A stretch of 61,809 bases of DNA from a bacterium (GTDB lineage: Bacteria > SZUA-79 > Acidulodesulfobacterales > Acidulodesulfobacteraceae): positions 1-61,809 of the forward strand of contig JAJZJX010000008.1 of the NCBI GenBank assembly GCA_021850985.1, read 5' to 3'. Below, piece by piece: positions 24,159-55,489 of this stretch (positions are counted from its first letter, which is position 1; each line of letters starts with the position of its first letter). A program made the translations under genes and the position numbers. A model generated the notes under the pieces. The model searched no databases and was not told the origin of the DNA. It saw only the letters and a program-made list of their open reading frames with translations.

Positions 24159-24235
24159 GCGCCCATAGCTCAGCTGGATAGAGCGTCAGACTACGAATCT
24201 GCAGGTCGGGGGTTCGACTCCCTCTGGGCGCACCA
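24159..24235 (+). tRNA. tRNA-Arg(ACG), attachment site of element 2
   Basis: A 77-nt cloverleaf with acceptor GCGCCCA/TGGGCGC, anticodon loop CTACGAA (anticodon ACG), T arm GGGGG/CCCTC with one G-U pair, and encoded CCA. Its anticodon stem-loop and 3' end recur at 40016-40065 in diverged form, so the island 24.2-40.0 kb is inserted here and has supplied this 3' half. Confidence 0.96.
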
Positions 24236-24427: not shown

Positions 24428-25468
24428 ATGGCAAGTCTATATAAAAGAACAAATTCAGACCACTGGTGGTACCAATTCAGGCTTGACGGAAAGCAATACA
24501 GAGGCTCTACGAAGACTACCGATAAAAAACTTGCAGAGAAAATTGCGGCTGCCGTTGAAGCCGATTATATTAGAAAAAGATTCTATATACCGGGATTGAT
24601 TAAAAATAATCACAGTTTAATCACAGTTTGGAATGAATATATTAAAAGCTTAAATAATTCTAAAAGAACAATCGATTACAAAAATTTAGCTTTTAACCAC
24701 ATAATAAATGTTTTTCAATCAAAAAACATTGAAGAAATATCGGCTAACGATATTTCAAATTATCAGCTATCCAGAAAGTTAGAGGTAATTAATAATCCTA
24801 AAAATATCGGTAAGCGGGAGCATGATATAAATTTTAGATGGATTAATCTCGAAATTACCACATTATCGCATTTTTTTAATTTCTGTATTAAATGCGGCTA
24901 TCTCGATAAAAACCCCTGCGCCGGCATTAAAAAGCTAAATGAACTATCCCGCCTGAAAACCCTATCCGACGGCGACATCCAAAAACTTATCGCCGGAGCT
25001 ACCAATAAGCTTACGAAAGATTTAATAACGTTTCTAATTTATACCGGCTGCCGCAAAGGCGAAGCGTTAAATCTTAAATGGGACGACGTAGACTTACAGA
25101 ATAACATAATAGCTATTAAGGGGACTAAAACCAAGTATGACAGGTATATACCTATAAGCAAGCCGTTAAAAGAGCTTTTAACCTGCATTGAAAAGAAAAA
25201 CGATTGCCTATATCTATTTAACGATAACGGACGTAAGTTAGGCGATTTTCGGCGTTCTTTTATGACCGCCTGTAGAAATGCGGGGCTAAAAGATTTAAGG
25301 ATACACGATTTAAGGCACGTCTTCGCTTCTAAAATGGTAATGAATGGAACGAGTCTTTATATTACGGGGGAACTGTTAGGACACCGGACGACGCAGATGA
25401 CAAAACGGTATAGCCATTTAGTGCCAGATACTTTGAGGAAGGCTGTTGATGACGTATGGAATAAATAA
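24428..25468 (+). CDS. int: Tyrosine recombinase integrase of element 2
   Basis: 346 aa. N-terminal arm-binding region (MASLYKRTNSDHWWYQFRLD), SAM-like core-binding domain (about 60-165) and catalytic domain. Active-site residues: Arg209 in TGCRKGEAL, His293 and Arg296 in HDLRH, His319 in LGHRTT, and Tyr328 in KRYSHL. It sits 192 bp downstream of tRNA-Arg(ACG), pointing inward, the standard layout for islands integrated in tRNA genes. No clear ribosome site, so low basal translation is likely. Full length and intact. Confidence 0.95.
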   Translation: MASLYKRTNSDHWWYQFRLDGKQYRGSTKTTDKKLAEKIAAAVEADYIRKRFYIPGLIKNNHSLITVWNEYIKSLNNSKRTIDYKNLAFNHIINVFQSKNIEEISANDISNYQLSRKLEVINNPKNIGKREHDINFRWINLEITTLSHFFNFCIKCGYLDKNPCAGIKKLNELSRLKTLSDGDIQKLIAGATNKLTKDLITFLIYTGCRKGEALNLKWDDVDLQNNIIAIKGTKTKYDRYIPISKPLKELLTCIEKKNDCLYLFNDNGRKLGDFRRSFMTACRNAGLKDLRIHDLRHVFASKMVMNGTSLYITGELLGHRTTQMTKRYSHLVPDTLRKAVDDVWNK

Positions 25469-25571: not shown

Positions 25572-26441
25572 ATGAAATTTTCGGAAAGAATAGAGGTAAC
25601 GCCAGTTAAAGTAGAAATACAAATAGAATCAATGGATGATGATTTGAGAAATTCTTTATGGAATGCTTTTCAAATGCACTGTTTAGATGTGATAAAGCCG
25701 CGCACGAATAATAGCATATATTACTCGTCAATATCATTGAGTTTCTTTAAATCGTTATGGGTAGATTATTTAAAATTACCCTTAGACTCTTTAGATGATA
25801 GTTATTCTTATACATGTAAAGTCCTGCAAGAGCAGTTTCTTCTTAAATGGGAATGGTACAAGGTATATGATTTCATAGAATTTGTGTCTTATATTATGGT
25901 TCCATATGGTGATAATTTTAAAAATGATTTTATATTATATTGCAATAGTGTATTAGAAAGGGAATTATCCGCATATAGATTTGTCGATGGGTTAATTACC
26001 CAAATTACTGATGAGAGTGAAATTAGAGAAATCGAAGAAGCAATTCAAAATGCTGGAGTTACAAAATTATCCGGCGTTCAGACGCATTTGAAATCAGCTT
26101 TAGCAAAAATGTCGGATAAAAAAGAGCCTGACTATCGCAATTCTATTAAAGAATCAATTTCTGCGGTAGAAGCAATTACTAGAATTCTTATTGGTGATCC
26201 TAATGCAACATTAGGCAACGCATTAAAAAAAATAGAAACAGAAGGGAACATTGTTATTCATGAAGCTCTAAAGACAGCATTCTCTAAGTTATATGGCTGG
26301 ACAAACGACACAGGCATCAGACATGCTTTAAATGAAGAATTAGATTTGCAATTGGAGGATGCTAAATATATGCTAGTTTCCTGCTCTGCTTTTATTAATT
26401 ACCTAATTGTGAAAGCAGATAAGGCTGGGATTAAATTATAG
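25572..26441 (+). CDS. AbiJ-like abortive-infection protein (HEPN)
   Basis: 289 aa. The N-terminal 120 residues begin MKFSERIEVTP and contain DDLRNSLWNAFQMH, matching by memory the AbiJ N-terminal domain 4. The C-terminal part (about 180-289) is helical with a DTGIRHALNEELDLQLEDAK block typical of the HEPN-like end of AbiJ proteins, which is thought to cleave RNA. It would act as an abortive-infection toxin against phage. It opens the defence block directly after the integrase. Confidence 0.7.
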   Translation: MKFSERIEVTPVKVEIQIESMDDDLRNSLWNAFQMHCLDVIKPRTNNSIYYSSISLSFFKSLWVDYLKLPLDSLDDSYSYTCKVLQEQFLLKWEWYKVYDFIEFVSYIMVPYGDNFKNDFILYCNSVLERELSAYRFVDGLITQITDESEIREIEEAIQNAGVTKLSGVQTHLKSALAKMSDKKEPDYRNSIKESISAVEAITRILIGDPNATLGNALKKIETEGNIVIHEALKTAFSKLYGWTNDTGIRHALNEELDLQLEDAKYMLVSCSAFINYLIVKADKAGIKL

Positions 26442-26654
26442 TATTAGTAATTTTATCAAAAACAAAAACAGGGTTATAATACTTAATAAAAGGATATGAT
26501 AAAAGGCTAAATCAAATTCTAAATTTAATATATAATAAAAATTATAATCAAGAATAAAATAAAATATCTAAAATTAAAAATTAAATTATAAAAAATGATA
26601 TAATCTAAAAACATAATATAATAAACATAAATTTTGCAATCCTATAAACATTTT

Positions 26655-27740
26655 ATGATTAAATCGCTTGAAATTAAAAATTTTAGATTGTTTAAAGAAC
26701 TTAACATAACAGGTTTTAAACCTATTAATGTTATAGTTGGTGATAATGCTGCCGGAAAAACAGCATTTTTGGAAGCTATATTGGTAGCTTCTATGGCAAC
26801 ACCGAGCGTTTTAAATATTAATTTAATTAGAGGTATTCGTTACTTTGCTTTACCATATGATGAAGAACAATTTCAAAAGCAATTTAGTTCATTATTTTTT
26901 AATTTTGATGTTGAAAAAACTATTTCATTTAAAATTATCCAGCAAGGGAATAAAGAAGCTTCTTTGGAAATATATTTTGATAGAAGTCAAAATAAAATAA
27001 TAGAAATGCCAGTTGATCAACCTTTGATTCCGCAACCCCAAGGATTTTCACGTCCTTTTATACCGTCTGTAACACCACTTGCTTTTCATAGAAAATCCTT
27101 TGAAGGTGAAGAAAATACTCTTTATATATCAATGACTCAAAATGGATTTTCTATTGATGGAGGAAAAAATTTTCTTGAAGCAGAAATGTTTTCCGCACCG
27201 CCTCTTGAATCTTATTTTCAAAAAGTTACAAGTTGGTATTCTAAGTTAAGTGAGGATGGCAAAGAACAAACAATAGATAATATAATGAAAAAATTGTATC
27301 CTGATATAGTAAAATTATCAATAATAATCCCATCATTATATGCTCCTGCGACGTTATATGCATCTGTTGTTAATCATGACAAGAAAATTCCTCTTTCAAT
27401 TGTATCTTCAGGAATTTATAAAGTTCTTTCTTTAATTCTAACAGTAAAAACTCTTAAATCAAGTATAATACTTATAGATGAAATTGATAACGGCATCTAT
27501 TATGAAAAATTTTCATTATTATGGAAATTATTGCATGATCTGTCCATTGAAAATAATAATCAAATTTTTTTATCTACACATAGTAGAGAATTTTTAAAAT
27601 CAAATACTTTATTAAAAGATAATTTTAAAAAAGATTTTTCATTAATACAACTTTCTCATAAAAATGGAATAGGTAAGGCTTATATATCTGAAAGCCGTGA
27701 CATATTCAAGGCTATAGAAAGCGGTATAGAAGTTAGATAA
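26655..27740 (+). CDS. ABC-type AAA ATPase of a predicted defence pair
   Basis: About 361 aa. I choose the ATG at 26655 (MIKSLEIKNFRLF) over the upstream TTG, since ATPases of this family start just before the IKNFR strand. Walker A GDNAAGKT is at residues 29-36, Walker B IILIDEIDNG near 270, and an H-loop LSTHSREFL near 305. This is the AAA_15/OLD-like SMC-type ATPase. It lies 19 nt before a TOPRIM-like gene, the layout of two-gene OLD/PARIS-like systems. No ribosome site is visible. Confidence 0.8.
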   Translation: MIKSLEIKNFRLFKELNITGFKPINVIVGDNAAGKTAFLEAILVASMATPSVLNINLIRGIRYFALPYDEEQFQKQFSSLFFNFDVEKTISFKIIQQGNKEASLEIYFDRSQNKIIEMPVDQPLIPQPQGFSRPFIPSVTPLAFHRKSFEGEENTLYISMTQNGFSIDGGKNFLEAEMFSAPPLESYFQKVTSWYSKLSEDGKEQTIDNIMKKLYPDIVKLSIIIPSLYAPATLYASVVNHDKKIPLSIVSSGIYKVLSLILTVKTLKSSIILIDEIDNGIYYEKFSLLWKLLHDLSIENNNQIFLSTHSREFLKSNTLLKDNFKKDFSLIQLSHKNGIGKAYISESRDIFKAIESGIEVR

Positions 27741-27759
27741 TATAAAAATTAATTGGCAA

Positions 27760-28500
27760 ATGGCTGAAGAAATTTGTAATGAGAGCTATAAAATATCTAC
27801 ACCTATTATAATACTATGTGAAGGAGCTGCTGATAAATCTTTTTTAAATTTAATAATAAAAGAAGGTAAATTCGAGCGCTTTTTTAGTGTTCCATTTCCC
27901 ATGGAAAAAAGCCCATTAAACACTGGAAATACTAGTGTGAGTAATTTTCCTGAAATGATAGACTATTTAGCTGCAGACAAAAAGGGTTTTGATGAAATTT
28001 TACAAGGTATCATAATAATTGCAGATAAAGGTTTTGGCGAGAAAAAAACATACAACAAAATATGCAAATCTTTTAGAAACACTAAATATGCCGATAAAAT
28101 CCCTAAGAATATTAACGAAATCTCAAAGGGTCATCCCTTCATCTTAATCTATTTAATTCCTGAAATGGATACAGGTGGGGGGTTAGAAAAGTTATTTATT
28201 GATGCTATTTTTGAAGAATGTGAGGGATTGAAAGAATGTATAAATAGTTATATATCGTGTTGTAGCAAGAGTAAGATTAAAATAGATGATTTAGGACCTG
28301 AAAAACAGGCTAAGTCTTATCTTCAATGTATTATTGCGGTTCTTAATAAAGAAGACCCAAATAAAAGTTTAAATTATTTGTTACGTAATAAAAAATGGCC
28401 TTCATTTTTTCCTGATAAAAAAATTTTTCTTAAACCTTTCATTGAAAAATTTACGAAATGGATAAGCGATTTCGGCTCAGAGAATAATAGGGTCTGTTAA
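27760..28500 (+). CDS. TOPRIM-like (DUF3226-type) effector of the ATPase pair
   Basis: 246 aa. PIIILCEGAADKSFLNLIIKE (about 17-37) carries the TOPRIM-like glutamate, GIIIIADKGFGEKK (about 86-99) the first acidic metal ligand, and YLIPEMDTGGGLEKLF near residue 128 the glutamate-rich C-terminal motif seen in DUF3226 proteins. Such domains are nuclease-like or nucleotide-handling effectors released or fired by the partner ATPase. The gene follows the ATPase after 19 nt. Closest analogy is AriB of PARIS, but the effector domain is not identical. Confidence 0.65.
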   Translation: MAEEICNESYKISTPIIILCEGAADKSFLNLIIKEGKFERFFSVPFPMEKSPLNTGNTSVSNFPEMIDYLAADKKGFDEILQGIIIIADKGFGEKKTYNKICKSFRNTKYADKIPKNINEISKGHPFILIYLIPEMDTGGGLEKLFIDAIFEECEGLKECINSYISCCSKSKIKIDDLGPEKQAKSYLQCIIAVLNKEDPNKSLNYLLRNKKWPSFFPDKKIFLKPFIEKFTKWISDFGSENNRVC

Positions 28501-28565
28501 GTTTTCTGTATAAATATAATGTGGTACACCTATTCTATTTTACAGAATATAAGATATTTACACTA

Positions 28566-28590
28566 CTTATCTAACAAAATGTTAAATAAG
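28566..28590. promoter_or_regulatory. Inverted repeat before the HNH gene
   Basis: CTTAT-C-TAACA-AAA-TGTTA-A-ATAAG: two 11-bp arms with one mismatch, about 36 bp upstream of the HNH start. Possible operator or hairpin controlling the endonuclease. Confidence 0.35.
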
Positions 28591-28625
28591 AAAATAGAGG
28601 GTAAAAAGGAAGAAGTTTAAGAAAA

Positions 28626-29603
28626 ATGACAAGAAGAAAGACTAAGAATATAACAGGTCTTGCAAGAATAAAAGGTATTCCTCTTCACGAGGCATGGGTA
28701 GGTTTTATTTGTCTTTCATGCGGTTCGCTTAATAACATTCGAGTTGGGCTTGATCTTTTAAATCCTAAAACAACATATGAAACTGCAGAATGGAAATGTA
28801 ATAAATGCGGCTATCTGCATTCTAAAAAATCTGATTTACCTTTTAAAAATTGGAGTAAAGATTTCACTATTGCAAAATCAATAAGGGCTCAGAGATTTTG
28901 GGAGGCATTTTTTAGAATAGCAACGGAGAATCCTGAATCATACTGGAAACAATGCTGTACCTGCGGTAGAATTCTTCCCTTTAATGCTTTTAGTAAACAC
29001 TCAAAATGGGGGCCGCTTGAACGACAGATGGAGTGCAGAAGCTGTAAAGGTGCAATCAATGCAACATTGAATCCAAAACGAACTAAAGAGCAACTGCATG
29101 AATCATCGTTGAGGAGAAGGGTCGCAGATTTATTACTAGAGGGGGAAAATGTAGCTACTGACATAGTTGATTTATTCAAAAGATTTGACAATAAATGTTT
29201 TAAGACAAAGCAACCGCTTGATATTAACAAGAGGGATACTTGGGCGGTTGACCATATTTTACCTTCAAAATGGTTATATCCCCTGATGAAAGAAAATGCA
29301 GCATTATTATCAAAAGAAGCAAATAATAATAAACGAGATAAGTGGCCTAGCGAGTTTTATACCAATAACGAATTGATTGAGCTTGCAAAAATAACTGGCG
29401 CGGATTTAGGACTATTAGCCAGCAAAACTCCTATTATCAATACCAATATCAATGTTGATAAGTGCGTAGAAAGGTATTTACAGGTCAGGGAAAGTTCTGA
29501 TTTGCCAAAAAGAATAAAAGAACTTAAAAAGATTATTAAAGATTATAATCTTATTGATAAACTCTCCGATGAAAATAAAAAACTGTTAGGTTTTAGAAGG
29601 TAA
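28626..29603 (+). CDS. HNH endonuclease, probable restriction enzyme
   Basis: 325 aa. Two zinc-ribbon-like sites: Cys29/Cys32 with Cys58/Cys61, and Cys111/Cys113 with Cys137/Cys140. The nuclease core is AVDHILPSKWLYPL (His210) followed by NNNKRDKWPS (233-242), the beta-beta-alpha-metal fold. It ends 4 nt before the convergent two-domain methyltransferase, which makes it the likely endonuclease of a type II restriction-modification system. Weak ribosome site. A truncated second copy of the N-terminal zinc domain lies at 33193-33435. Confidence 0.75.
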   Translation: MTRRKTKNITGLARIKGIPLHEAWVGFICLSCGSLNNIRVGLDLLNPKTTYETAEWKCNKCGYLHSKKSDLPFKNWSKDFTIAKSIRAQRFWEAFFRIATENPESYWKQCCTCGRILPFNAFSKHSKWGPLERQMECRSCKGAINATLNPKRTKEQLHESSLRRRVADLLLEGENVATDIVDLFKRFDNKCFKTKQPLDINKRDTWAVDHILPSKWLYPLMKENAALLSKEANNNKRDKWPSEFYTNNELIELAKITGADLGLLASKTPIINTNINVDKCVERYLQVRESSDLPKRIKELKKIIKDYNLIDKLSDENKKLLGFRR

Positions 29604-29607
29604 ATAT

Positions 29608-32268
29608 TTATTGCAAAATAAGATACTGGTGAGAGGTAACAGTTCCTTTATCCTTTATCCCGTGTGATTCGCAATGCTCTACACTTTCAACGAATAAATC
29701 AACCGTATTAAACCAGCGTTTGCTTATCTTTTTTAATTCTTCCGCCATATCACATTTTACGCTTTTACCTAGATGAAAAACGCAGACACCAGTATGTTTG
29801 AGTCTTTCTCTTGCCTGTCTGAATATGTTTTCATAAATGCTAAAGTCCTTTTTTTGCTTTTCCTCAATGTATGAGTTTATTCGACATTTAAAATCATTTT
29901 CTGACCATCCGCAAAACCAGATGCGTACCCAGTTAGCAAGATAAAACCTTGTGCTATCAAAAAATGGCGGAGAGGTTACAACAGCGTCAAGATTATTTAT
30001 TTCATATGGCCATATAGATGTAGAGTCTTGATAGTAGATTCTTCCTGTAACAAAAGTCGTGGGCAATTCCACACGTAATGCCCTTTCAACTTTATCAGTA
30101 AGATTTTTAATCAGGCTTTTATAAATAAACTCTCCTTGAGGAGCATACGGAACAATCGGATGTGAACGCCTACTCAATGCATAAGGCCTATTGCCATGCA
30201 AGATATGTAACAATGAGGATAAAACAAGCATTTGGTCCGGATTTTTTGGATGGTTAAACTTTAAAAATCTCCTTGCAAGTAGAATCTCTCCGAGCGTCTT
30301 ATTTTCATAATATTCTGCAAGTGTTTTGTTAAAGCCGAAATGCTTTGCTTCATAAAATTCTTCCTCTGCGCAGTCATTTTGCTTTATAAATTCTGCTATT
30401 TGATGAATGTAATTCATACATTCATTTCTTTTATGTGTGTTGACCTTAGCCGATGAAATATAATAAGCAGGCAGACTTATATCAAATCCAAAGGATTTCC
30501 TTCCATTTAATGCCGCCTCAAAAGGAATTGTACCTACGCCTGAAAACGGATCAAGGACCCTTCCGCCGTCCGGAATAAATGTTTTAATTAAATTATAAGC
30601 AATGGATGGCTTCAATTTTCCTTGATAAGAGCAAAGAGAATGAAGTGGATGCCCCCAATTTCTCTTTGAGTATGGTAGTTTTTGGTGGGGCAGATTATTT
30701 TTAAAATGCTCCCAATTTTCAAGGTTAAAGTTCTGTATCTTCTGTTTTTTCTGTGATTTATATTTTGATTTATCAAATTCTAACACTAATAATGTCTGAC
30801 TTAATATCTCTTTATTTCTTGACCGTCGCTTTCGTAAAAGCTTTTTTTCATTTAATTTATATCCAAGTGTGTTCAATATCTCAACCAGAACATCATCAGT
30901 TCTTACATGCACATTAGCAAATATAGAATCGCCAATATCAATCAAGACCATTGCCTGGTTTGCAAGATGTTTTCTCATATTTGAAAAAACAACATACATT
31001 TCTTCAAAGTAACTTTTTATCATAAGTGGGATACGCGAGTCGTATGATTTTTTTTCCAATTTTATAAGGATATCTTTTAATAGTTCACTTTTATACAATA
31101 TATCTGTTTCGATGTTACCTGAAATACCCTTTTTCACATCGTTAATCCCGCTTGTAAGAGCCTGGTCGCGGAGAAATCGTAGATCGTTTTCGAACTGAAT
31201 ATATCGTAAAAACCACAACTCTAATTTAGTATTCCTGAAATAGTTTGTTCCGTTAAGATAGGGTGGACTTGTAATAATAGCGTCAATCTCTAAATTATTT
31301 ATCAATTCAATGTTTTTGGCATTGGCAAGAATCATCTCTGGCACAGTCTTTAAAGTAAAATCAAAATTAGAGATATCATTTGCTATATCTTTTAATTTGG
31401 AAGGAAGAAAAGTTTCTAATGCAACTCTTTCTTTTTCCAGTTCATATTTGGTCTTAAATCTGACATCGCCCGCTTTTTTCAGAAGGGATATAGGAATTAA
31501 TGCAGATAAAATAGCTATAGTAACAACATCAGCAAGTAGTTCATTTTCTAACCTTAAAATATCAATAAAAGAACGCATGCGAAGCAATTTGCTAAAGACA
31601 ATATCATCAAAATATTTACTACTGTTAAAAATAAGATTATAATTTTCCTTTAGATGGCTGTCTTCATCAAAATTATCTACAGTTCTTATCACTTGTTCGG
31701 CGACTCGGTTTATGTTGTCAGTTAATTGTTTACGTGTCGATTGGCTTGATTTTAAAATCCTTATCTTTGTCTGTATTAAAAATTGCAGAAGAGGGTTAAT
31801 TTCAGAATACACTGTATTTATATTTAATTGGTCAGCAGCAAAAATGGTAGTTCCAGTTCCAATGAAAGGGTCGTAAATACAAGACGTATTTTTGCAATAG
31901 TTATTGATAAGCGATTTTACAAACTCAGGAGAATATCCTTCAATAAAAGGATACCACCTCTGGAAAGGGATTGACTTACTGTTAATAAATGTCACATCTT
32001 TTGGATTTATAACGGAATGGCCGCTAAGATTTTTTTTTATCAAAACTTTAACAGCTTGATTAATAGATCTTTCTTCTTTTTCAGCAAATAATGCCAGTTG
32101 TTTATAACTTTTAATACCAATTAGTTCTCTCAACTCCTCGCTGCTTAAATCTTTAACCTTTGCGTAATAAGGTGCTTCGGATTTGCCGAAAGCTAAGGTA
32201 ATTGATTTTTTTTTGGGGTCTTCAGAAGGATAATCATAAAAATAAGTGGATTTGAAATATTGGTTCAT
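29608..32268 (-). CDS. Two-domain DNA methyltransferase of the R-M system
   Basis: 886 aa with two complete methylase modules. Module 1: DPFIGTGT (residues 133-140) and TSPPYLNG (333-340). Module 2: DPFSGVGT (573-580) and TSPPFFDS (765-772). The DPF-type AdoMet motif before TSPP[YF] defines a beta-class N4-cytosine or N6-adenine enzyme. Two modules in one chain usually methylate the two strands of an asymmetric site. Convergent with the HNH endonuclease, with 4 nt between stops. Confidence 0.9.
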   Translation of the reverse strand: MNQYFKSTYFYDYPSEDPKKKSITLAFGKSEAPYYAKVKDLSSEELRELIGIKSYKQLALFAEKEERSINQAVKVLIKKNLSGHSVINPKDVTFINSKSIPFQRWYPFIEGYSPEFVKSLINNYCKNTSCIYDPFIGTGTTIFAADQLNINTVYSEINPLLQFLIQTKIRILKSSQSTRKQLTDNINRVAEQVIRTVDNFDEDSHLKENYNLIFNSSKYFDDIVFSKLLRMRSFIDILRLENELLADVVTIAILSALIPISLLKKAGDVRFKTKYELEKERVALETFLPSKLKDIANDISNFDFTLKTVPEMILANAKNIELINNLEIDAIITSPPYLNGTNYFRNTKLELWFLRYIQFENDLRFLRDQALTSGINDVKKGISGNIETDILYKSELLKDILIKLEKKSYDSRIPLMIKSYFEEMYVVFSNMRKHLANQAMVLIDIGDSIFANVHVRTDDVLVEILNTLGYKLNEKKLLRKRRSRNKEILSQTLLVLEFDKSKYKSQKKQKIQNFNLENWEHFKNNLPHQKLPYSKRNWGHPLHSLCSYQGKLKPSIAYNLIKTFIPDGGRVLDPFSGVGTIPFEAALNGRKSFGFDISLPAYYISSAKVNTHKRNECMNYIHQIAEFIKQNDCAEEEFYEAKHFGFNKTLAEYYENKTLGEILLARRFLKFNHPKNPDQMLVLSSLLHILHGNRPYALSRRSHPIVPYAPQGEFIYKSLIKNLTDKVERALRVELPTTFVTGRIYYQDSTSIWPYEINNLDAVVTSPPFFDSTRFYLANWVRIWFCGWSENDFKCRINSYIEEKQKKDFSIYENIFRQARERLKHTGVCVFHLGKSVKCDMAEELKKISKRWFNTVDLFVESVEHCESHGIKDKGTVTSHQYLILQ

Positions 32269-32918
32269 AATTGGATTTTCCTTAGAGAATAAACTAATAT
32301 ATTATGATAGTTATTTCATAAAATGTCAATAGGTTAATTATCTAAAATTGTTTTGTCTTTATTTATATTATGAAAATGGTTTGCGGCAATTTTAATTTTA
32401 TTTGTTTACTAAAACATAACCAATCCTTTTTTAATAAAAATTTAATAAAAATTAGCAGAATATTAAACTTCTGTGAATATGCGAAAAATTCATCTCAACA
32501 TGATATAAATACTAACATTATAGTTAGAATAAATTTATGATTTATTTGTGAAATATTTATTTATAATCATTTAGGCATTGATATTTCAAAGGTTTGCAGA
32601 TAAAATTTTTTGTGAATAATTTATAAATAATTGATTGCATAAAGATTCACGGCAATATATCAAAATTTATATTCAATTTACAATGGTTACCCCAAAAAAA
32701 ATATTTCGTGAAATATTCATCAAATAAAACATATTTTTAGACAGCCAAGAAAAAAGACTTTTCTTTTGGCCGTCCTTCTTTTAAATAATTCATAATAATT
32801 AGCAATAATTAGCAAATGTTTGCGAATTATTTAATAGCCGTTAAATATAGATATATACTATATTTATTAATAAATATTTTAATAATTCACATATTCACAA
32901 CTACGTAAAAGCCGGATT
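32269..32918. other. AT-rich gene-free stretch with degenerate TGTGAATAT repeats
   Basis: About 650 bp without a gene. TGTGAATATG (32472), TGTGAAATATT (32546), TGTGAATAATT (32611), CGTGAAATATTC (32707) and inverted TTCACATATTCACA (32886) recur. It borders a replication-protein-like fragment (32919), so it could be a former origin or an operator cluster. No strong hairpin terminator seen. Confidence 0.35.
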
Positions 32919-33202
32919 TTAATTTCCGATTTTTTTATAATAAACGGCGGATTTCGTTTTAGTCTTTTCTATGCGGACTGCGATGGGCTGTCTTTCAATT
33001 AGCGTATCGATAAAATTATCGAAGTCCCTTTTTAGCATATGGGTATAACGGAGCAGTTTGCTCCTTTCTACTATCCTGCCGTTATCTGAGATTAAGTTTA
33101 GCATTTTGTCCATTATCTCTTTGTTTCTGTCTTTGATTAATTTATCGTAAACGGCGTAAAGGTTTATTTTTGGTTCGGCGTTTAATTTAATTTTAAATCG
33201 GT
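32919..33202 (-). pseudogene. C-terminal fragment of a larger protein with a winged-helix end
   Basis: From the ATG at 33113 there is a 64-aa winged-helix-like end (VERSKLLRYTHMLKRDFDNF), but the frame stays open upstream to about 33202 with protein-like sequence (NLYAVYDKLIKDRNKEIMDK). The upstream part is cut by the truncated zinc-ribbon gene. The composition recalls the C-terminus of plasmid primase/helicase-type proteins; identity not certain. Confidence 0.5.
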
Positions 33203-33435
33203 GTTAACACAAATGGCAATGGAGAATTTTTGCTATGCAGATATTTGCATTTTTTACACCCCCATTTAGCTGTGGAATAAGTATCGTTTGATTCTAAAAG
33301 GACATCGCCAATAGGGAATAGATTTAAGGCGTCACAATTAATACAAATATATCCTACCCATGCATAATTTACTTTTTTACCAATGCCTTTCTTTCGGGGT
33401 AATCCTGTTTTATGCTTTGTTTTACGTCTTACCAT
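33193..33435 (-). pseudogene. Truncated copy of the HNH enzyme N-terminal zinc domain
   Basis: 80 aa. MVRRKTKHKTGLPRKKGI and later TAKWGCKKCKYLHSKNSPLP match residues 1-73 of the HNH endonuclease at 28626, with both Cys pairs kept (Cys31/Cys34 and Cys60/Cys63). After the shared LPF the protein ends within 5 residues. The HNH core is missing, so it is a fragment or a free zinc domain. Its end overlaps the fragment at 32919-33202. Confidence 0.65.
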
Positions 33436-33770
33436 TATTTGATGAAACTCCTGTATTAACTGAAAAATACAACATATTGTTATCTTTGATGTATATAAAT
33501 TTATTTTTTATCGCAAGCTATCTAAGTTTTGTGTAATCGTCAGTTGCTTAAAAGTAAACAAATTCTGCGTTGCTATCTGGAACCCCTGATTTTAAATGAA
33601 TATATGGAAATCTTTTACTTAAATCCATTCCTATGTTAAATACAGAAATTCTATTGTAAACTAAATATCGTTATTCCGCATTGTTGTTGATGTAAAATAG
33701 GATATAGAACCTATCCCTTGAACGTTGATTTAGTAATTTATATTCGTATCAAACATAAACTGTTTTTAGC
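33436..33770. other. Gene-free stretch, no recognisable feature
   Basis: 335 bp of AT-rich DNA between the truncated zinc-domain gene and a hypothetical gene. No long open frame, repeat or hairpin noticed; likely decayed DNA plus the promoter of the gene at 33435. Confidence 0.4.
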
Positions 33771-34160
33771 TTAAATCCCCTTGTAATAACTCCTGTAAAA
33801 ACCACAATACCTAAAATATTTCCATGTTCGTTTATATATGTAAGTCCAATTCAAATTTGGCATGTTTTGTTTTTGAAGTTTCGATGCCATATAGTCCAAA
33901 CATAAATGCCCATAAGCAATTCTAATATAATCAGTTGCTGTTCGTTGCTTTATAGTTCCTAAATTATTTATCCAGGTTGTAATGCGCTTTCGAATCTCTT
34001 TAACTGAATGATTCTTATCAAGTGATCTGTGATTGCTACCGTATATATATAATCCTTCATCCATTATATTATGAACAGTGTTCCCGTCCGTGTTTCTTGA
34101 TATTACTTCCTTACTCCGTAAAATATCATCAAATTCTAAATGATATAGTCTTTCTGGCAT
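33771..34160 (-). CDS. Hypothetical protein next to the GIY-YIG gene
   Basis: 129 aa, basic and aromatic-rich (LNWTYIYKRTWKYFRYCGFY at residues 104-123). No membrane helix or known motif. Starts 45 nt after the GIY-YIG stop, so the two may form an operon. Could be a DNA-binding partner of the nuclease; no evidence beyond position. Confidence 0.5.
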   Translation of the reverse strand: MPERLYHLEFDDILRSKEVISRNTDGNTVHNIMDEGLYIYGSNHRSLDKNHSVKEIRKRITTWINNLGTIKQRTATDYIRIAYGHLCLDYMASKLQKQNMPNLNWTYIYKRTWKYFRYCGFYRSYYKGI

Positions 34161-34205
34161 TGTATTATTCTCATATAAATTAATATTAACAAGCCGATAT
34201 TAAAA

Positions 34206-34529
34206 TTACTTTCCCCATTCGCAACCAGACACAGGACACCTCCAAATTGTCCCATTAGGAACCCTTGGATGTATTTCATTATCAGGTGGTTCATATTTAT
34301 GATACCACTTACATTCTAAGTGATATGCTCGCATAGGTGAACTTTCGTATTTGAAATAAAAATATTTATAACCACGACCTTCTTTTGCCGACTTTTTTAT
34401 CCTACCATTGAGATCTTCGTCTGAACGTCCAACATAATATACTTCTTCATTTTGCGAAAGAAATATATATGCTCCTATTGAATTTTTTTCTACATAATTG
34501 TCAACTTCCTCCATTAAATGCAATGTCAT
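34206..34529 (-). CDS. GIY-YIG-like nuclease domain protein
   Basis: 107 aa. GAYIFLSQNEEVYYVGRSDE (residues 18-37) is the GIY-YIG strand pair (GAY...YVG), followed by the catalytic arginine region LNGRIKKSA and a glutamate in YHLECKWY. A CPVSGC pair near the C-terminus suggests a zinc or disulfide. Short stand-alone nucleases of this type occur as homing, repair or restriction enzymes. It lies in the defence island; substrate unknown. Confidence 0.7.
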   Translation of the reverse strand: MTLHLMEEVDNYVEKNSIGAYIFLSQNEEVYYVGRSDEDLNGRIKKSAKEGRGYKYFYFKYESSPMRAYHLECKWYHKYEPPDNEIHPRVPNGTIWRCPVSGCEWGK

Positions 34530-35181
34530 ATAATGTCTCCAATTTATATCTATTTTCTTAATTACTATAATTATTATAGGTTTTGGTATGCCAATTAATC
34601 GTTGCAGAATGTGATTTTATATAGGTTTATCATCGCAATAAATTTATTTCTTTTAAAATTTTCCATTCTTAAAAGCTCATCATCGCTTCTAACTTAATCC
34701 ACGTTCAAAACATATACATAAACAACATTATTATTATAAACCTGCGCCTTTCCTATCACTCTGTATTCGTAATAATTGGCACTTGTTTTGCCGTATTGCC
34801 TTGTTGTAAATTTTCATGAAAATTGACACTTGTTTCGACAATAACATTATTTATAACAATTTTAGCATCATTTAACAAGAATAATCTTACGATAACCCTG
34901 CTTAACCACCTCCGCCATAATCTTTTTGCTGTATTTAATATAAATTATGGTATTTTACATTTGAAATATTAGCAAACCCAAAAATTCTATGCCAATATTT
35001 CTGAATATCTGTATTCTTATTTTTGGTTTCGGATTTAATCTTCATAATTTTACTTTTTAAAACACTATTATAGTAAGTTTTTAGCATAAATAAATAAAAA
35101 AAACGAGATTATTTTATAAATTTTTTATCTAAAATGGTGGGGCTTACTTCCTATGTATTTTGCTATCAGCTATTATAGTTT
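34530..35181 (-). pseudogene. Gene-poor stretch with a decayed coding remnant
   Basis: No intact gene in 650 bp. Leftward frames between about 34930 and 34697 read protein-like pieces in different frames (FLLNDAKIVINNVIVETSVN, then GKTSANYYEYRVIGKAQVYN and VVYVYVLNVD with stop), so a small gene has been broken by at least one frameshift. The rest is AT-rich with no feature seen. Confidence 0.35.
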
Positions 35182-35625
35182 TTAATCTGCACCTCTTACC
35201 TTTTTCCTTATAATCCTTTTATTTTTGTTCGGATTAGGTTTATATGGACAAAAGGGGTACTTTTCTTTTTTAGCACTAACAGCAGTGACATCGGATATAG
35301 CTTTAATATTTGATTTAGGAATAGCAGGTGCTGCAACAATAGTAAGTCTGGTAGATTTAATTAGTCTCTGTTCCTCTTTGATTTCTTCTATAATTGTACT
35401 TTTAATTTCCGCAATTATGTTGGCCTGACTCTCTTTAAGCTCAGAAACCTTAGCTAACGTGATTTCTACCTTGTTATGTTCAACCGATGTTTTTAATATG
35501 TGATATAGGGCTATAATAGCCATTATAATCATGCCGAAACCGAATATAGACAAAAGATGGACGATACTAAAAAGATGCGTAATATATGAATGTATTTGAT
35601 TGAATACATGGATTATTTTAAACAT
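35182..35625 (-). CDS. Hypothetical membrane-anchored coiled-coil protein
   Basis: 147 aa. One membrane helix (LLSIFGFGMIIMAIIALYHI, about residues 24-43), a coiled coil (residues 55-95, ELKESQANIIAEIKSTIIEE) and a basic Lys/Pro-rich tail (PYKPNPNKNKRIIRKKV). Unknown function; first in line after two basic-protein genes of the same strand. Confidence 0.45.
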   Translation of the reverse strand: MFKIIHVFNQIHSYITHLFSIVHLLSIFGFGMIIMAIIALYHILKTSVEHNKVEITLAKVSELKESQANIIAEIKSTIIEEIKEEQRLIKSTRLTIVAAPAIPKSNIKAISDVTAVSAKKEKYPFCPYKPNPNKNKRIIRKKVRGAD

Positions 35626-35654
35626 ATTTTAACTGAGCCCCCTTTTTACAGTTT

Positions 35655-36041
35655 TTAAATATCCCCGCTTTCGCTTCCTTTGGCGTCAAAGGAAGTGGGG
35701 TTCGGGGCGAAGCCCCGATATATTGTTTTTAAAAGTTTTTTTCTTTTCCTTTTTGCTTTTCTCTTTAATCTCTGCCGTTCTCTTTTAAGCAGGTCGTTTT
35801 GCACATATTCAAATTCTTCCCATTCGTCAATTTTCCTTAGCTTGAATTCTATCTTTTCTTTGCATATCTTTGAGATTTCCCTAATATTTTCAGGCGGCGG
35901 CATTATATCTACTTCCACAAGCGAAATATGACCTGGATTGCGTTTTAAAACTTTAGCATGAAAATATTTGTCAATAAGCACTTCTCTTATCCGCTTTTCA
36001 ATAAACTTTTTTGTAGCTTCAGTTTTTAGAATCGCTCTCAT
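35655..36041 (-). CDS. Hypothetical very basic protein with hairpin-coded end
   Basis: 128 aa with a strongly basic stretch (RERQRLKRKAKRKRKKLL, about 86-103). The last 20 codons (GFAPNPTSFDAKGSESGD) are encoded by two perfect DNA hairpins (35674-35695 and 35702-35718), which suggests the gene end overlaps a repeat or terminator. Family unknown. It follows the second recombinase gene by 36 nt. Confidence 0.45.
   Translation of the reverse strand: MRAILKTEATKKFIEKRIREVLIDKYFHAKVLKRNPGHISLVEVDIMPPPENIREISKICKEKIEFKLRKIDEWEEFEYVQNDLLKRERQRLKRKAKRKRKKLLKTIYRGFAPNPTSFDAKGSESGDI
35674..35718. repeat. Two adjacent perfect hairpins
   Basis: CTTCCTTTG-GCGT-CAAAGGAAG (9-bp stem, 35674-35695) and TCGGGGC-GAA-GCCCCGA (7-bp stem, 35702-35718). 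GC-rich against the local AT background. They overlap the end of the gene at 35655-36041 and could end transcription or be a mobile palindrome. Confidence 0.6.
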
Positions 36042-36077
36042 ATTTATTTCCTACCTTTAATAAATTTTTCAATTTCT

Positions 36078-37073
36078 TTACCCCAAATATCTCTCTGTAA
36101 TTTCAATCCTTTCGTGTCCTAATCCCCTGCTTATTTTCAACCGGATTTCCTTGTCCATTTTTTGAAATTCTACTTTAGATAGCCCTGTCGTTACTAATAT
36201 CCTGATAACCCATTCCGATTTAGTTTCCCCGGTTCTTGCCCTGCACTCGATGTCGTATCCTTTAGCCTGCCAAGCTTCTTTGTATGCCTCGTGAGTCGTC
36301 CGGTGCCGTTCCCCGTGGTAATGGAATGCAATGTTTGTTTCCTCTCTGAACGCTTTTAGAGTATTGTTTGCAAAATCCCGCCCCTGTCTGATTGTGCCGA
36401 TATTAAGATTCTTCAGTCCATTATCTTTCAAAAAATGTCTTGCTTCTAAAAGAGTTGCCTTTTGCTCCGGATTTATAAGTATTTCCCTTGCCCTGCTGTT
36501 TTTTGAACCGTCGCCTTTTGCCGATACTTTTAATGTATTTTTAGACAAGTCTTTATTTTGCAGTTTAATAAGCAAGCTTTCTCTTAACCTTAAATTAACC
36601 GATTGAATGCCGACTGCTTGTTTTAATGCCGCATATCTTAAGTCATTAGTTTCTTGAAACTTTTTATCAAGCCATTCTTTATAAGCCGCTACCGCTTCCC
36701 TGCTATTTTCTTTATTTATTCCGTCTTTTTCGGAAATATTACGGCTTAATCCGTAATCCGACGCCTTAATAGCATGTAAATCATCCCTGACGACATACCT
36801 AATAACATTGTTAAGACTTGAAATATAAGAACCCGCCGCACTTGTTGACATAGTTCCGGCAGAAACTTTTTCTTTTAATGCCGAGACTATTTTATGGATA
36901 TGCGATTCTTCAAGGTTTTTTAAAGTCTTTATTTTTATTTCGTTTCTTAATAAATGCAATGTTGCCGATATTTTCTCATTAGTCGCGCTTCCACGATGTA
37001 AGAATTCAGATATTTCTTTTGCGAGATAACTTATTTTAGAGTCGTTTTTAATGCTCAGCGCTTTTCCGTTCAT
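36078..37073 (-). CDS. Atypical tyrosine recombinase (Integrase_1-like)
   Basis: 331 aa. A SAM-like N-terminal half (1-135) and a catalytic half with Arg164 (LRLRESLLI), HYHGERHR (251-258), His320 in GLGHERIEI and Tyr329 in RYLG at the very C-terminus. The family resembles the Integrase_1/DUF group seen in mobile elements, distinct from the main integrase at 24428. The Tyr lies two residues from the end, with no extension. It probably acts on another site, for example the hairpin cluster at 37.4-37.7 kb. GTG/ATG overlap couples it to the gene at 37070. Confidence 0.75.
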   Translation of the reverse strand: MNGKALSIKNDSKISYLAKEISEFLHRGSATNEKISATLHLLRNEIKIKTLKNLEESHIHKIVSALKEKVSAGTMSTSAAGSYISSLNNVIRYVVRDDLHAIKASDYGLSRNISEKDGINKENSREAVAAYKEWLDKKFQETNDLRYAALKQAVGIQSVNLRLRESLLIKLQNKDLSKNTLKVSAKGDGSKNSRAREILINPEQKATLLEARHFLKDNGLKNLNIGTIRQGRDFANNTLKAFREETNIAFHYHGERHRTTHEAYKEAWQAKGYDIECRARTGETKSEWVIRILVTTGLSKVEFQKMDKEIRLKISRGLGHERIEITERYLG

Positions 37074-37375
37074 TTTAAAATCCCCTCTTTTATTAATTTA
37101 ATTTTGAAATACCTTTTACAAAACTCCGATATTATTAAAAAATACTTCCGGCGGGTTTCATGTGATTTATTGAGCATTTCAGGTGTGTTAAAAAAATCTA
37201 TTATTATTTGCTTCTTGTATATGCCGTTTGTGTGAAAGATGCCTTTAGATTCACAGTATTCCAAAAATTTAAGCATAACTGCATCTTTAAACTTTTCCGT
37301 TTGACGAGTATTTTGATGTTTTTGCACTATAAATAGTCGCCTATGTTGTTTATAAAATTCCGTTAATTTCCCCAT
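37070..37375 (-). CDS. Hypothetical helical protein, possible recombinase partner
   Basis: 101 aa, basic and helical, with SAM-like repeats (FYKQHRRLFIVQKHQNTRQT, later KSHETRRKYFLIISEFCKRY). It overlaps the atypical recombinase by 4 nt and lies upstream in the same operon, so it may be the DNA-binding part of a split recombinase. No family recognised. Confidence 0.5.
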   Translation of the reverse strand: MGKLTEFYKQHRRLFIVQKHQNTRQTEKFKDAVMLKFLEYCESKGIFHTNGIYKKQIIIDFFNTPEMLNKSHETRRKYFLIISEFCKRYFKIKLIKEGILK

Positions 37376-37954
37376 ATATATATGCCTCTATATTTATTTA
37401 TTTTCGTCCCGATACATCGCCGAAGCGATTGTTAAATACTAAACCTGTTTTCCTTTCGGACGGAAGGCAACTCCAAATTTCGGAACTTATATATATTGTG
37501 TTCGTGTTCGTTAATATCGCCTTTTGGCGCAATTAACGAAATTATTCACGACGAGCCTTTTTCTATGTGATAACATAGAGAAAGGCGAGTAATCAGGCAT
37601 CAAAACCTTATATATCTTAACGGACTTGGTTTTTGATGTAACGGACTACCCATAAACTAACATAAAAAACCGTTTTTAAAAACGGCGTTAATTTTTCGCA
37701 AAGTTTGAATAAAAACTGCTTTGGAATAGTCTCAAATTAATGTAGATAAAATTAATATCAAGTGCGGATACTAATTTAATTAACTGAAAACTACCAAGTG
37801 GTATGTTTTTATTTTCTTAACGTTCATATCCGGATACCCTTTTTTATTTGCCTGCATAGCGCAAAAGGTATCAATATTAATCAAAATTAATATTATCGTT
37901 TTTGAAAAATAGCGATTTTCGCTATAAAACAATCGGGTTATCTGCAGTAAAAAT
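37376..37954. other. Gene-free stretch with a cluster of strong hairpins
   Basis: About 580 bp with no gene but with at least four inverted repeats: ATCGC-CGAA-GCGAT (37412-37425), TTCGTTAAT...ATTAACGAA enclosing CGCC-TTTT-GGCG (37507-37540), a 14-bp stem with one wobble (GCCTTTTTCTATGT, 37555-37586) with a GATA loop, and the 16-bp palindrome CCGTTTTTAAAAACGG (37670-37685). It lies beside the atypical recombinase operon and could be its folded substrate, an origin or a regulatory RNA. Confidence 0.55.
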
Positions 37955-38215
37955 TTATATATTAATCATTCCTTTATTATTTTTAATATTTATTTTTTTT
38001 ATTGCGCTATAAAATCCTTCTACTTTATTGTTCTCCAGATATTGTTCAATATCCGACGTCTTAATTAAAATTTTAGATTTAACCCGATAAAATGTTATTT
38101 CTCTACCGTTCACAAGCCGCCTTATAGTCATCTTATTTACATTTAGATATTGTGCGGCTTGGCTGACGTCTAATAACTCATTCCGAACTTCCGGTTTTAT
38201 ATTTTTATTTCCCAT
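37955..38215 (-). CDS. Excisionase-like HTH_17 protein of element 2
   Basis: 86 aa. The HTH_17 excisionase fold: LLDVSQAAQYLNVNKMTIRR (14-33), then ITFYRVKSKILIKTSDIEQY. It is the same type as the protein at 8600-8887 and is the likely recombination directionality factor of this island. A good promoter (TTGACT, 16 bp, TATAAT) lies in the divergent gap before the LexA-like gene, so the two are probably cross-regulated, as in phages. Confidence 0.75.
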   Translation of the reverse strand: MGNKNIKPEVRNELLDVSQAAQYLNVNKMTIRRLVNGREITFYRVKSKILIKTSDIEQYLENNKVEGFYSAIKKINIKNNKGMINI

Positions 38216-38239
38216 ATTATTTTATTTTGTAAATAAATG

Positions 38240-38275
38240 TTGTATAATTATATTATATAACTTATTTCTATAAAG
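38240..38275 (-). promoter_or_regulatory. Promoter of the excisionase-like gene
   Basis: Reading leftward: -35 TTGACT, 16-bp spacer, -10 TATAAT, about 30 nt before the ATG at 38215. It lies in the 174-bp gap shared with the divergent repressor gene. Confidence 0.55.
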
Positions 38276-38389
38276 TCAAATTATATTTTTATCATTGTAA
38301 ATTTATGTAGGATATATTTAGATATATTTAAAGATGCCACATTTTTTTTAAAATGATACAATTTAAAAATTCAAAAAGGAGAATCTTAA

Positions 38390-39310
38390 TTGCGTAAGAA
38401 AAAACCCAGGTTAAATGTTTTTGAAGTCAAGTTAATCGAAAAACTAAAAAATTTAAGGATCGAACAAAACCTGACTCAGGAAGAACTTGCCAAAAGAGCC
38501 GGACTATCCAGAGTATCGATTACGGAACTCGAAACATTCAGGAAAAAACCAACCTCCAAGATTATAGAAAAAATATCTAAAACATTGGATTTCCCCGATT
38601 ATGTTAAAGAATTAAAAAAAATAGTTGAAAAACAAAATGAAGAATTTGAAGAAAAAACTTCTAATTTAATCGAAAATCGGTTTAATCCCGTACCTTTATC
38701 GGATAAATTAATTACCGATAAGGAAGAACTATTGAAATTAAACGAAAATACCAAAGGGCCGTTTGTTTTCGTTCCGGGTAGAATGGCTGTAGTGATAAGC
38801 AAAATTAATGGAATATATGCTTATAAAATGCCTGATCCCTCGATGGAACCCACTATTAAAGAGGGTGATTTTCTGATTATTAAATATCTTAAACAAACCT
38901 TAATGCCGGATGATTTGCTGGCAAGTATGTATTTTGGCGATTCCAGTATTGTAGTTATATCTAACGGCAAGCAAAACTTCATAAGAAGAATGAAAAAAAT
39001 TCGCTATTATACAAGGTTTAATGCGAAAAATAAGGGCAATAATAAAACAGATAAAAATTATCCAAAGGACATCGTGTTTTTTATTGCGGATAATCCTTTT
39101 GATAACGGTTTTTATTTTGAACCTGAATGGGATACTAATAACAGAGCCGTTACTGATGAAACATACAATGAGATAGATACCAGAACATTTTCCATAGACG
39201 ATAACTCCGATTTTAAAATTATCGGGGTTGTTATTATGATTGTCAAGGGAAATCCAATAAACGACATAGATATAGAAGCGCTTTTAACAACCAAGTGGCT
39301 GAATGAGTAG
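38390..39310 (+). CDS. LexA/CI-like regulator with HTH and S24 peptidase domain
   Basis: 306 aa. Xre-type HTH at residues 15-70 (TQEELAKRAGLSRVSITELE), then a linker and an S24/LexA-like domain with the serine motif PDPSMEPTIKEGDFLII at about 143-159. In the usual Lys position the protein reads NFIRRMKK, with Arg-Arg in place of the expected Lys-Arg, so self-cleavage may be altered. TTG start with AAAAGGAG site 9 nt upstream; no better start. It is expected to keep excision and defence genes quiet until SOS. Divergent from the excisionase gene. Confidence 0.78.
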   Translation: MRKKKPRLNVFEVKLIEKLKNLRIEQNLTQEELAKRAGLSRVSITELETFRKKPTSKIIEKISKTLDFPDYVKELKKIVEKQNEEFEEKTSNLIENRFNPVPLSDKLITDKEELLKLNENTKGPFVFVPGRMAVVISKINGIYAYKMPDPSMEPTIKEGDFLIIKYLKQTLMPDDLLASMYFGDSSIVVISNGKQNFIRRMKKIRYYTRFNAKNKGNNKTDKNYPKDIVFFIADNPFDNGFYFEPEWDTNNRAVTDETYNEIDTRTFSIDDNSDFKIIGVVIMIVKGNPINDIDIEALLTTKWLNE

Positions 39311-39467
39311 ATTTAATATTTTAATATATAGCAGGTTTATAAAAAAGTTTAAAATTATAAAGAGAAATTCATAAAAAATAAAAATGTTAAAATTATTTTA
39401 GTGTAAATTATGATATAATAATAGGAAAATATCGACATTTGATAAAATTAAATAATATCGAGGAATT

Positions 39468-39686
39468 ATGAAACAGTTTAAAATTATCGTAGAAAAGCAT
39501 CCCGACGGTTATGTAGCATATCCTATAGGAATTAACGGGGTAGTGGTCGGCGAAGGCGACACTTACGAAGAAGCCCTAGAAGACGTAAAATCTGCCATAA
39601 AGTTTCATATAGAAACTTTCGGCAGCGATATTTTAGAAAACGATTTACCAGTTCTTGAAGCGTTTGTCGCAGAAGCAGGGGTATAA
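39468..39686 (+). CDS. hicB: HicB-like antitoxin
   Basis: 72 aa, a partial RNase-H fold typical of HicB (FKIIVEKHPDGYVAYPIG, then EGDTYEEALEDVKSAIKFHI). It lacks the usual C-terminal HTH or RHH extension, which makes it a short version. It lies 7 nt before hicA. The pair would stabilise the island by addiction. Confidence 0.8.
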   Translation: MKQFKIIVEKHPDGYVAYPIGINGVVVGEGDTYEEALEDVKSAIKFHIETFGSDILENDLPVLEAFVAEAGV

Positions 39687-39693
39687 TAACATA

Positions 39694-39933
39694 ATGTCCA
39701 AGTTTCCCATAGACGCGCCAAAACAAAGGGTAATAAAAACGCTTGAAATATTAGGTTTTAAGACTGTCAGGGAAAAAGAACATATATCTATGGAACGGAT
39801 AAACAAAGACGGTTCTAAAACAACCTTAACATTACCTAACCATTCAAAAATAAAAAGTTCGACTCTCAGGACTATTTGTACGCAATCGGATATTTCAAGA
39901 GAAGATTTTATTAACGCTTATGACAAGACTTAA
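39694..39933 (+). CDS. hicA: HicA-like mRNA interferase toxin
   Basis: 79 aa counted from the ATG at 39694 (MSKFPIDAPKQRVIKTLEIL); an upstream in-frame start would overlap hicB and is less likely. The double-stranded-RNA-binding fold of HicA with the key histidine in HISMERINK (about residue 29) and LPNHSKIKSSTLRTI is intact. It is the last gene before the element end, a common place for addiction modules. Confidence 0.82.
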   Translation: MSKFPIDAPKQRVIKTLEILGFKTVREKEHISMERINKDGSKTTLTLPNHSKIKSSTLRTICTQSDISREDFINAYDKT

Positions 39934-39940
39934 TTTTTTT

Positions 39941-39959
39941 AATCACACTTTAGCGCACA
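39941..39959 (+). repeat. Element-end direct repeat, right copy
   Basis: AATCACACTTTAGCGCACA; 18 of 19 positions match the copy at 24342-24360. It lies 57 bp inside the right attachment site. Confidence 0.55.
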
Positions 39960-40015
39960 TAAAAAATATATATGCTTAATTAATTAGTAATTTTAATAAG
40001 TTATAAACCATACTT

Positions 40016-40065
40016 TCAGACTACGAATCTGCAGGCCGGAAGTTCGAATCTTCCTGGGCGCACCA
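40016..40065 (+). other. Right attachment site: displaced 3' half of tRNA-Arg
   Basis: TCAGACTACGAATCTGCAGG is identical to the anticodon stem-loop of tRNA-Arg(ACG) at 24.2 kb; the following T arm (GGAAG/CTTCC) and TGGGCGCACCA form a proper 3' end but differ from the current tRNA. This is the original chromosomal 3' half, pushed here when the island inserted. Confidence 0.85.
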
Positions 40066-55472: not shown

Positions 55473-55489
55473 TTTACCGACGATATTAC

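What the first reader, a model, noticed from the sequence alone, without database searches (positions are those of the whole stretch)
36078..37690. Second atypical recombinase operon next to a cluster of DNA hairpins
A tyrosine recombinase whose catalytic Tyr is two residues from its end, with a small coupled helical partner, sits beside four or more strong inverted repeats in a 280-bp stretch. Folded single-stranded substrates are used by integron integrases, so this could be a hairpin-recombining system, or the repeats could be an origin.
Basis: partly seen in the sequence, partly recalled or inferred. Interest (0 to 1): 0.6.

Follow-up and report, generated by a model that had tools for sequence, protein, structure and literature searches.

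The report
Structured RNA leading a recombinase operon
The hairpins beside this recombinase gene are part of a conserved, previously uncatalogued RNA structure that always sits just in front of the recombinase operon of a mobile DNA element, so they look more like an RNA control switch than DNA targets for the enzyme.

Summary
P0001 (36078-37073, -) is a divergent tyrosine recombinase with the full R-K-H-R-H-Y set and Tyr329 of 331. P0002 (37070-37375, -) overlaps its start and is predicted to be a free-standing recombinase N-terminal (SAM-like) domain. The hairpins (37376-37690) are conserved beside homologues: a covariance model finds them in 12 of 30 genomes of this small phylum, at 19 loci, each 6-81 nt upstream of a P0002 gene. 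Base pairs covary strongly (16 pairs with two-sided changes; 5.7 in shuffles, 1-5 when slid). In three distant loci stems changed sequence but kept the fold. One stem swaps UUCG, GNRA and CUUG tetraloops, an RNA signature on the operon-sense strand. A second structured stretch (37665-37948) lies upstream and ends in a conserved terminator. No Rfam family matches. The module lies in a 15.8-kb element in tRNA-Arg that has its own ordinary integrase. Best reading: a structured leader/immunity-type RNA controlling an early operon, as in P4-like satellites (mechanism inferred). A hairpin-recombining DNA site is disfavoured, not excluded. New variant of a known kind, with a new candidate RNA family.

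The parts
24186..24235 (+). attL: 3' half of tRNA-Arg(acg) (tRNA 24159-24235)
   Evidence: 43 of 50 identical to 40016-40065, first 20 bp exact; empty sites in G013:C47 and G005:C18 (L100 read)
40016..40065 (+). attR: right end of the 15.8-kb element
24428..25468 (+). P0005, the element's ordinary tyrosine integrase beside tRNA-Arg
   Evidence: PF00589 E 6e-27, phrog_1 E 1e-65
37955..38215 (-). P0004, AlpA/excisionase-like HTH protein
   Evidence: HTH_17 E 5.7e-13; TIGR01764 excise 50.8 bits, cut-off 28.8
37665..37948 (-). RNA-A: conserved structured non-coding stretch ending in a terminator (stem 37686-37669 then U-run)
   Evidence: 16 pairs tested on 13 loci: 94.2% paired, covariation score 0.494, shuffles 0.260, slid at most 0.135; terminator
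37621..37647 (-). two AGTCCG direct repeats 21 bp apart (37642-37647 and 37621-37626), one inside the hairpin 37638-37598
   Evidence: near-invariant in A1; role unknown
37555..37586 (-). RNA-B hairpin H1: near-invariant inner arms TTTCTCTATGT/ACATAGAAAAA, covarying outer pairs
   Evidence: unique to the module
37502..37551 (-). RNA-B hairpin H2: long stem with a 6-nt 5' bulge
   Evidence: 97.3% and 97.9% of cells paired in its two segments; sense-strand G.U bias
37406..37486 (-). RNA-B branched domain closed by P1 (GTTCCGA/TCGGGAC), with the H6 stem and its UUCG loop
37070..37375 (-). P0002, free-standing SAM-like core-binding domain, start codon 31 nt after RNA-B
   Evidence: AlphaFold2 pLDDT 82; all 22 top structural matches are tyrosine recombinases or their N-terminal domain, Z 7.1-9.6, next unrelated row 4.3
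36078..37073 (-). P0001, divergent tyrosine recombinase with complete active site, ends YLG
35655..36041 (-). P0003, conserved basic protein downstream of P0001, function unknown
   Evidence: homologue in 12 of 19 loci; no convincing family match

Best explanation
The hairpin cluster is a conserved structured RNA at the head of an early operon of a tRNA-integrated, satellite-like mobile element. SHOWN by comparison: the roughly 580-nt gap between the AlpA-like gene P0004 and P0002 folds into two conserved structured stretches. RNA-A ends in an intrinsic terminator. RNA-B (H1, H2 and a branched domain) ends 6-81 nt before P0002. The wobble pattern of H2 says that the folded strand is the operon-sense strand. 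The unit P0002-P0001-P0003, followed in several relatives by a CHC2/Toprim primase and a DUF3987 protein, stays together. INFERRED: transcription from the P0004 side makes RNA-A and mostly stops at the terminator. Read-through, after induction or by RNA pairing or processing, gives an mRNA whose structured leader RNA-B sets expression or stability of the recombinase/replication genes, in the manner of P4 immunity RNA and attenuation. P0005 integrates the element at tRNA-Arg. P0001 with P0002 as an accessory DNA-binding domain does a second site-specific job on dsDNA, for example resolving multimers of the excised element; the site of that reaction is unknown.
For: Covariation of RNA-B and RNA-A, both beyond shuffled and slid controls. 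The model recovers held-out loci whose recombinases are only 42-46% identical, or lost, at E 1.1e-17, 3.3e-11 and 2.1e-9 with re-made stems. Sense-strand G.U bias in H2. H6 loops: UUCG 3 (C-G closed), CUUG 1 (G-C closed), GNRA 10, other 4, of 18 loci (in L025 the script chose another stem and the loop was read by eye). Terminator conserved. Every sense-strand match counted lies just upstream of P0002: 19 of 19. The ~33% homologues L039/L040 carry a strong intrinsic terminator directly before P0002, that is an attenuator-like leader. Gene layout int, AlpA-like, RNA, operon with primase in relatives matches the GN-PICI/P4 order described in PMC10111431 (passages read); P4 CI RNA termination control as described in PMC4825925 (passages).
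Against: No transcript data. G.T wobbles also occur in folded ssDNA, so strand does not prove RNA. H1 shows the opposite wobble bias (A.C 13, G.U 0). RNA-B has no terminator of its own in the main family and the ribosome site is not clearly buried. No Rfam C4/isrK match. The window's own element shows no primase or DUF3987 gene. No P4-like antisense pairing between RNA-A and RNA-B was found by eye.
Confidence: 0.6

Rival explanations
1. Folded single-stranded DNA hairpins are the recombination substrate of P0001, as attC sites are for integron integrases.
For: Hairpins conserved beside the recombinase. Best fold match is integron integrase 2a3v, Z 14.1, next 12.9. H1 arms are near-invariant inverted repeats with a variable loop, as a folded site could be.
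Against: P0001 has no match to the integron-integrase model TIGR02249, nor is it among that model's 21 matches in the own genome. One hairpin set per module, no array, no second genomic copy of H1. RNA-type tetraloops and a terminator. The set always sits at the operon head, in the same order and orientation, in 19 loci.
Confidence: 0.1
2. Replication control: an origin or ssDNA priming site, or a primer/copy-number RNA, for the excised element.
For: Primase (CHC2/Toprim), DUF3987 or RepB-primase genes sit in or beside the operon in relatives. AGTCCG repeats 21 bp apart.
Against: The window's own element keeps the RNA without recognised primase genes. No plasmid replication evidence.
Confidence: 0.15
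3. H1 is a double-stranded binding site (operator or crossover site) for P0001/P0002/P0004, while the rest is leader RNA.
For: H1 inner arms are nearly sequence-invariant and its mismatches show no sense-strand wobble.
Against: Spacer varies 3-6 nt, unlike a fixed crossover site. Outer pairs covary. L083 replaces the inner arms with a different perfect stem.
Confidence: 0.12

Closest known systems
P4-like satellites and gram-negative PICIs (int, alpA, immunity RNA with termination, primase); PMC10111431 and PMC4825925, passages read
   Same: tRNA-integrated element with integrase, AlpA-like HTH, structured RNA with terminator ahead of an early operon; relatives add a primase
   Different: RNA unrelated to C4/isrK in Rfam; operon begins with a second tyrosine recombinase and a detached SAM-like domain; no helper phage or packaging shown
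Integrase_1-type recombinases (PF12835, 'integrase domain-containing protein')
   Same: tblastn similarity over up to 92% of P0001 (best E 8e-10), same catalytic set, YLG end
   Different: P0001 does not match PF12835; no P0002 relative in the plasmid collection; P0001 comes with an extra SAM-like protein and a structured leader
Integron integrase with attC hairpins
   Same: Tyrosine recombinase near hairpins; nearest solved fold
   Different: No match to the integron-integrase model, no array of hairpin sites

Membership tests
Tyrosine recombinase | R-K-H-R-H/W-Y catalytic residues | tested here: met
   R162 K191 H253 R256 H320 Y329 invariant in 20 rows
Tyrosine recombinase | Core-binding plus catalytic fold | tested here: met
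   AlphaFold2 pLDDT 90; IntI, Tn1549 Int, lambda Int, XerH and Cre lead the list, Z 14.1 to 11
Tyrosine recombinase | PF00589 above cut-off for P0001 itself | tested here: not met
   Not listed; homologue L032 passes
Integrase_1 (PF12835) | Profile match | tested here: not met
   P0001 has no PF12835 hit at E<=1, although five plasmid relatives do
Integron | Integron-integrase profile TIGR02249 | tested here: not met
   No hit for P0001
Integron | attC-like array | tested here: not met
   One H1 per module
P4-like satellite/GN-PICI | Integrase at a tRNA with att repeats | tested here: met
P4-like satellite/GN-PICI | AlpA-like regulator | tested here: met
   P0004: HTH_17, TIGR01764
P4-like satellite/GN-PICI | Primase in the element | tested here: not met
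   None recognised among the ORFs scanned in the window element; present beside the module in relatives
P4-like satellite/GN-PICI | C4/isrK immunity RNA | tested here: not met
   Only tRNAs above gathering score in the window
P4-like satellite/GN-PICI | Mobilised by a helper phage | not testable with these tools
   needs induction experiments
Known Rfam RNA | Match to any of 4227 families | tested here: not met
   Nothing but tRNA at gathering score; best match in 37000-38300 at E 3; in six relatives only sub-threshold matches

The most novel reading that the evidence does not exclude
RNA-B is a working partner of the recombinase: P0002, a detached DNA-binding domain, binds the leader RNA and the RNP assembles with or targets P0001, giving an RNA-dependent tyrosine recombinase (compare bridge RNAs of IS110, recalled, not tested).
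Probability: 0.06. Interest if true: 0.9.

Novelty: new variant of a known kind. Interest (0 to 1): 0.5.

Why it matters
It is a candidate structured RNA family, outside Rfam 15, fixed to a tyrosine recombinase operon in a poorly studied bacterial lineage. It gives a testable case of RNA control over recombination and replication genes in a satellite-like element, and the detached SAM-like domain suggests an unusual recombinase make-up. Tight cis linkage with an independently conserved fold makes an RNP role worth one cheap test.

Tried and rejected
H1 as a genomic recombination site: the pattern search in 30 genomes gave 18 places, 14 in modules and 4 within one conserved protein-coding stretch (dnaE by recall of the peptide); rejected.

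RNA-A/RNA-B antisense pairing (CCGGAAG with CTTCCG): looked for by eye, broken in the window, L022 and L030; dropped.

Viral sources: no relatives of P0001, A8 or A6 in IMG/VR. Phages: one unannotated 3.1-kb record. P0002 not in plasmids. Solved-structure sequence searches: nothing useful for P0001 and nothing for P0002.

Generality of hairpins at PF12835 relatives: upstream folds z -1.07 (L074), -5.84 (L075), -2.76 (L076); L077 has no leader, as its recombinase overlaps the preceding gene. So hairpins are not universal there; R1 has no match in L073-L077.

Literature: no description of such an RNA found in searches (listings and abstract starts only; PF12835) showed no functional study in its listing; two searches were background.

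Rows left out: A3 used 14 of 19 RNA loci; A4 15 (adds L082, leaves out L035, whose match equals L034's, and L083, L038, L092); A7 13 of 19 (leaves out L032, L033, L035, L038, L083, L092). MAFFT misaligned part of P1 and H6 in A3 (helix 7 67.9% paired; still 70% in A4). A4 is fitted to the model's structure, so its counts lean towards it; on A3, which is not, two-sided changes were 9 pairs against 5.2 shuffled. In A7 the structure tested was the one predicted from A7 itself.

Full report
WHAT IS THERE. On the minus strand the order is P0004 (AlpA/excisionase-like HTH, 37955-38215), a gap of about 580 nt, P0002 (101 aa), P0001 (331 aa, overlapping by 4 nt) and P0003 (128 aa). P0001 is a tyrosine recombinase: all six catalytic residues are invariant among 20 relatives and the predicted fold (pLDDT 90) matches integron, Tn1549, lambda, XerH and Cre recombinases. 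It falls below the Pfam PF00589 cut-off itself, but its 67%-identical homologue L032 passes. Distant relatives on small plasmids are PF12835 proteins; P0001 itself does not match PF12835. P0002 is predicted to be a detached recombinase N-terminal domain: Foldseek alone gave no hit below E 0.001, yet in the second alignment the 22 best entries are all tyrosine recombinases (one of them the N-terminal domain alone) at Z 7.1-9.6, and the next, unrelated row is 4.3.

SETTING. A 20-bp exact repeat inside a 43-of-50 match links the 3' half of tRNA-Arg (24186-24235) with 40016-40065. In G013:C47 and G005:C18 the tRNA flank runs straight into the right flank (G013 read), so 24186-40065 is an inserted element of about 15.8 kb. 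It has an ordinary integrase, P0005, next to the tRNA, defence-like genes and the P0001 module. In several relatives the operon continues with a CHC2/Toprim primase and a DUF3987 protein. The phylum is represented by only 30 held genomes, all one family. Named contigs of the same elements are metagenome-assembled bacteria; an acid-mine origin and the phylum Acidulodesulfobacterota are my inference from isolate names and recall.

THE HAIRPINS ARE A CONSERVED FOLD. P0001 homologues occur in 16 of 30 genomes. A covariance model built from 14 loci matches 12 of 30 genomes. At its 19 sense-strand loci a P0002 homologue starts 6-81 nt downstream in 19 of 19, a P0001 homologue follows in 17 of 19, an AlpA-like gene lies upstream in 12 of 19 and P0003 follows in 12 of 19 (some contigs end first). 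The two loci without P0001 are L082, where P0002 breaks off after 35 residues and another reading frame, transposase-like to my eye, begins, and L092, where P0001 is a stub. L092 lies in G021, which gave no P0001 hit. Five genomes with P0001-like hits (weak, partial, or about 33% identical) show no RNA. Weak antisense matches also occur; they centre on the H1 palindrome. On the refitted alignment A4, 93.5% of cells pair, 16 pairs have two-sided changes (shuffles 5.7 +/- 1.4; slid 1-5) and the covariation score is 0.168 (0.094). The fit favours the structure, but the unfitted A3 also exceeds its controls on these measures: 9 pairs (5.2), score 0.139 (0.090); its count of pair types does not (25 against 23.7). 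The strongest test is held-out loci: L083 (recombinase 45-46% identical), L092 and L038 are found at E 1.1e-17, 3.3e-11 and 2.1e-9, with P1 changed from GTTCCGAA/TTCGGAAC to a different paired sequence in L038 and L092, and H1 and H2 re-made in L083.

RNA OR DNA. H2 varies by sense-strand G.U (28 cells at 9 pairs) and hardly by A.C (3 at 2), so the folded strand is the operon strand. The H6 stem carries UUCG on C-G in 3 loci, CUUG on G-C in 1, GNRA in 10 and other loops in 4, of 18 (L025 by eye): the trio typical of structured RNA (recalled). The 18 are related, so they are not independent. G.T wobbles and some of these loops are also possible in ssDNA, so this is strong but not proof. H1 goes the other way (A.C 13, G.U 0), resting mainly on one position.

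RNA-A. Upstream, 37948 to 37665 (-), a second stretch is conserved in 13 aligned loci. Its 16 tested pairs are 94.2% formed with covariation 0.494 (shuffled 0.260, slid at most 0.135), and it ends in a terminator: 2 terminator-like sites, one per strand of the same stem, found in the region against 0.6 expected. In the window alone RNA-A folds only moderately better than shuffles (z -2.76, 4 of 200 as good). In the distant pair L039/L040 a strong terminator stem stands immediately before P0002, suggesting attenuation there too.

HOW IT MOST LIKELY WORKS. The layout, and RNA followed by termination before an early operon, resemble P4 and gram-negative PICI immunity (PMC10111431, passages; PMC4825925, passages). 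I infer that RNA-A and the terminator keep the operon low and that RNA-B shapes the read-through mRNA. P0001 with P0002 then performs a second recombination job; no target site was found. Control by RNA is inferred, not shown.

NOVELTY. No Rfam 15 family matches and no paper found describes it (listings and abstract starts). The parts are of known kinds; their combination and the RNA family appear new.

Noticed in passing
window 25572-32268: Defence-like cargo in the same element: PDC-S32/AbiJ_NTD4 protein, AbiLi/PDC-M38A ATPase with a DUF3226 Toprim-like partner, a protein weakly like an HNH/Cas9 region, and an 886-aa DNA methyltransferase.
   Followed up: partly
window 8600-23227: Left of the tRNA pair lies a separate mobile region with a TrwC relaxase-helicase, a TrwB coupling protein, a ParB-like protein and a phage replisome organiser.
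   Followed up: no
window 55090-55490: tRNA-Ser has a 78-bp exact partial copy 225 bp upstream, with shared flanks, like a remnant of an integration or a duplication.
   Followed up: no
L039 7611-8128 and L040 4399-4881: Distant P0002-P0001 pairs, with a RepB-type primase gene upstream in L039, have a long intrinsic terminator directly before P0002 and another long hairpin further upstream.
   Followed up: partly
L075 5950-6365: A PF12835 recombinase in a Salmonella record has its own cluster of strong hairpins upstream (z -5.84). The same DNA is 100% identical in two short phage records from different hosts, so it may be a contaminant.
   Followed up: partly
L034 and L035: The module matches equally in G014 and G019, genomes of different genera (same identities and scores): recent transfer or a binning error.
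   Followed up: no
window 37621-37647: AGTCCG direct repeats 21 bp apart are conserved in nearly all loci and may be protein-binding sites.
   Followed up: no
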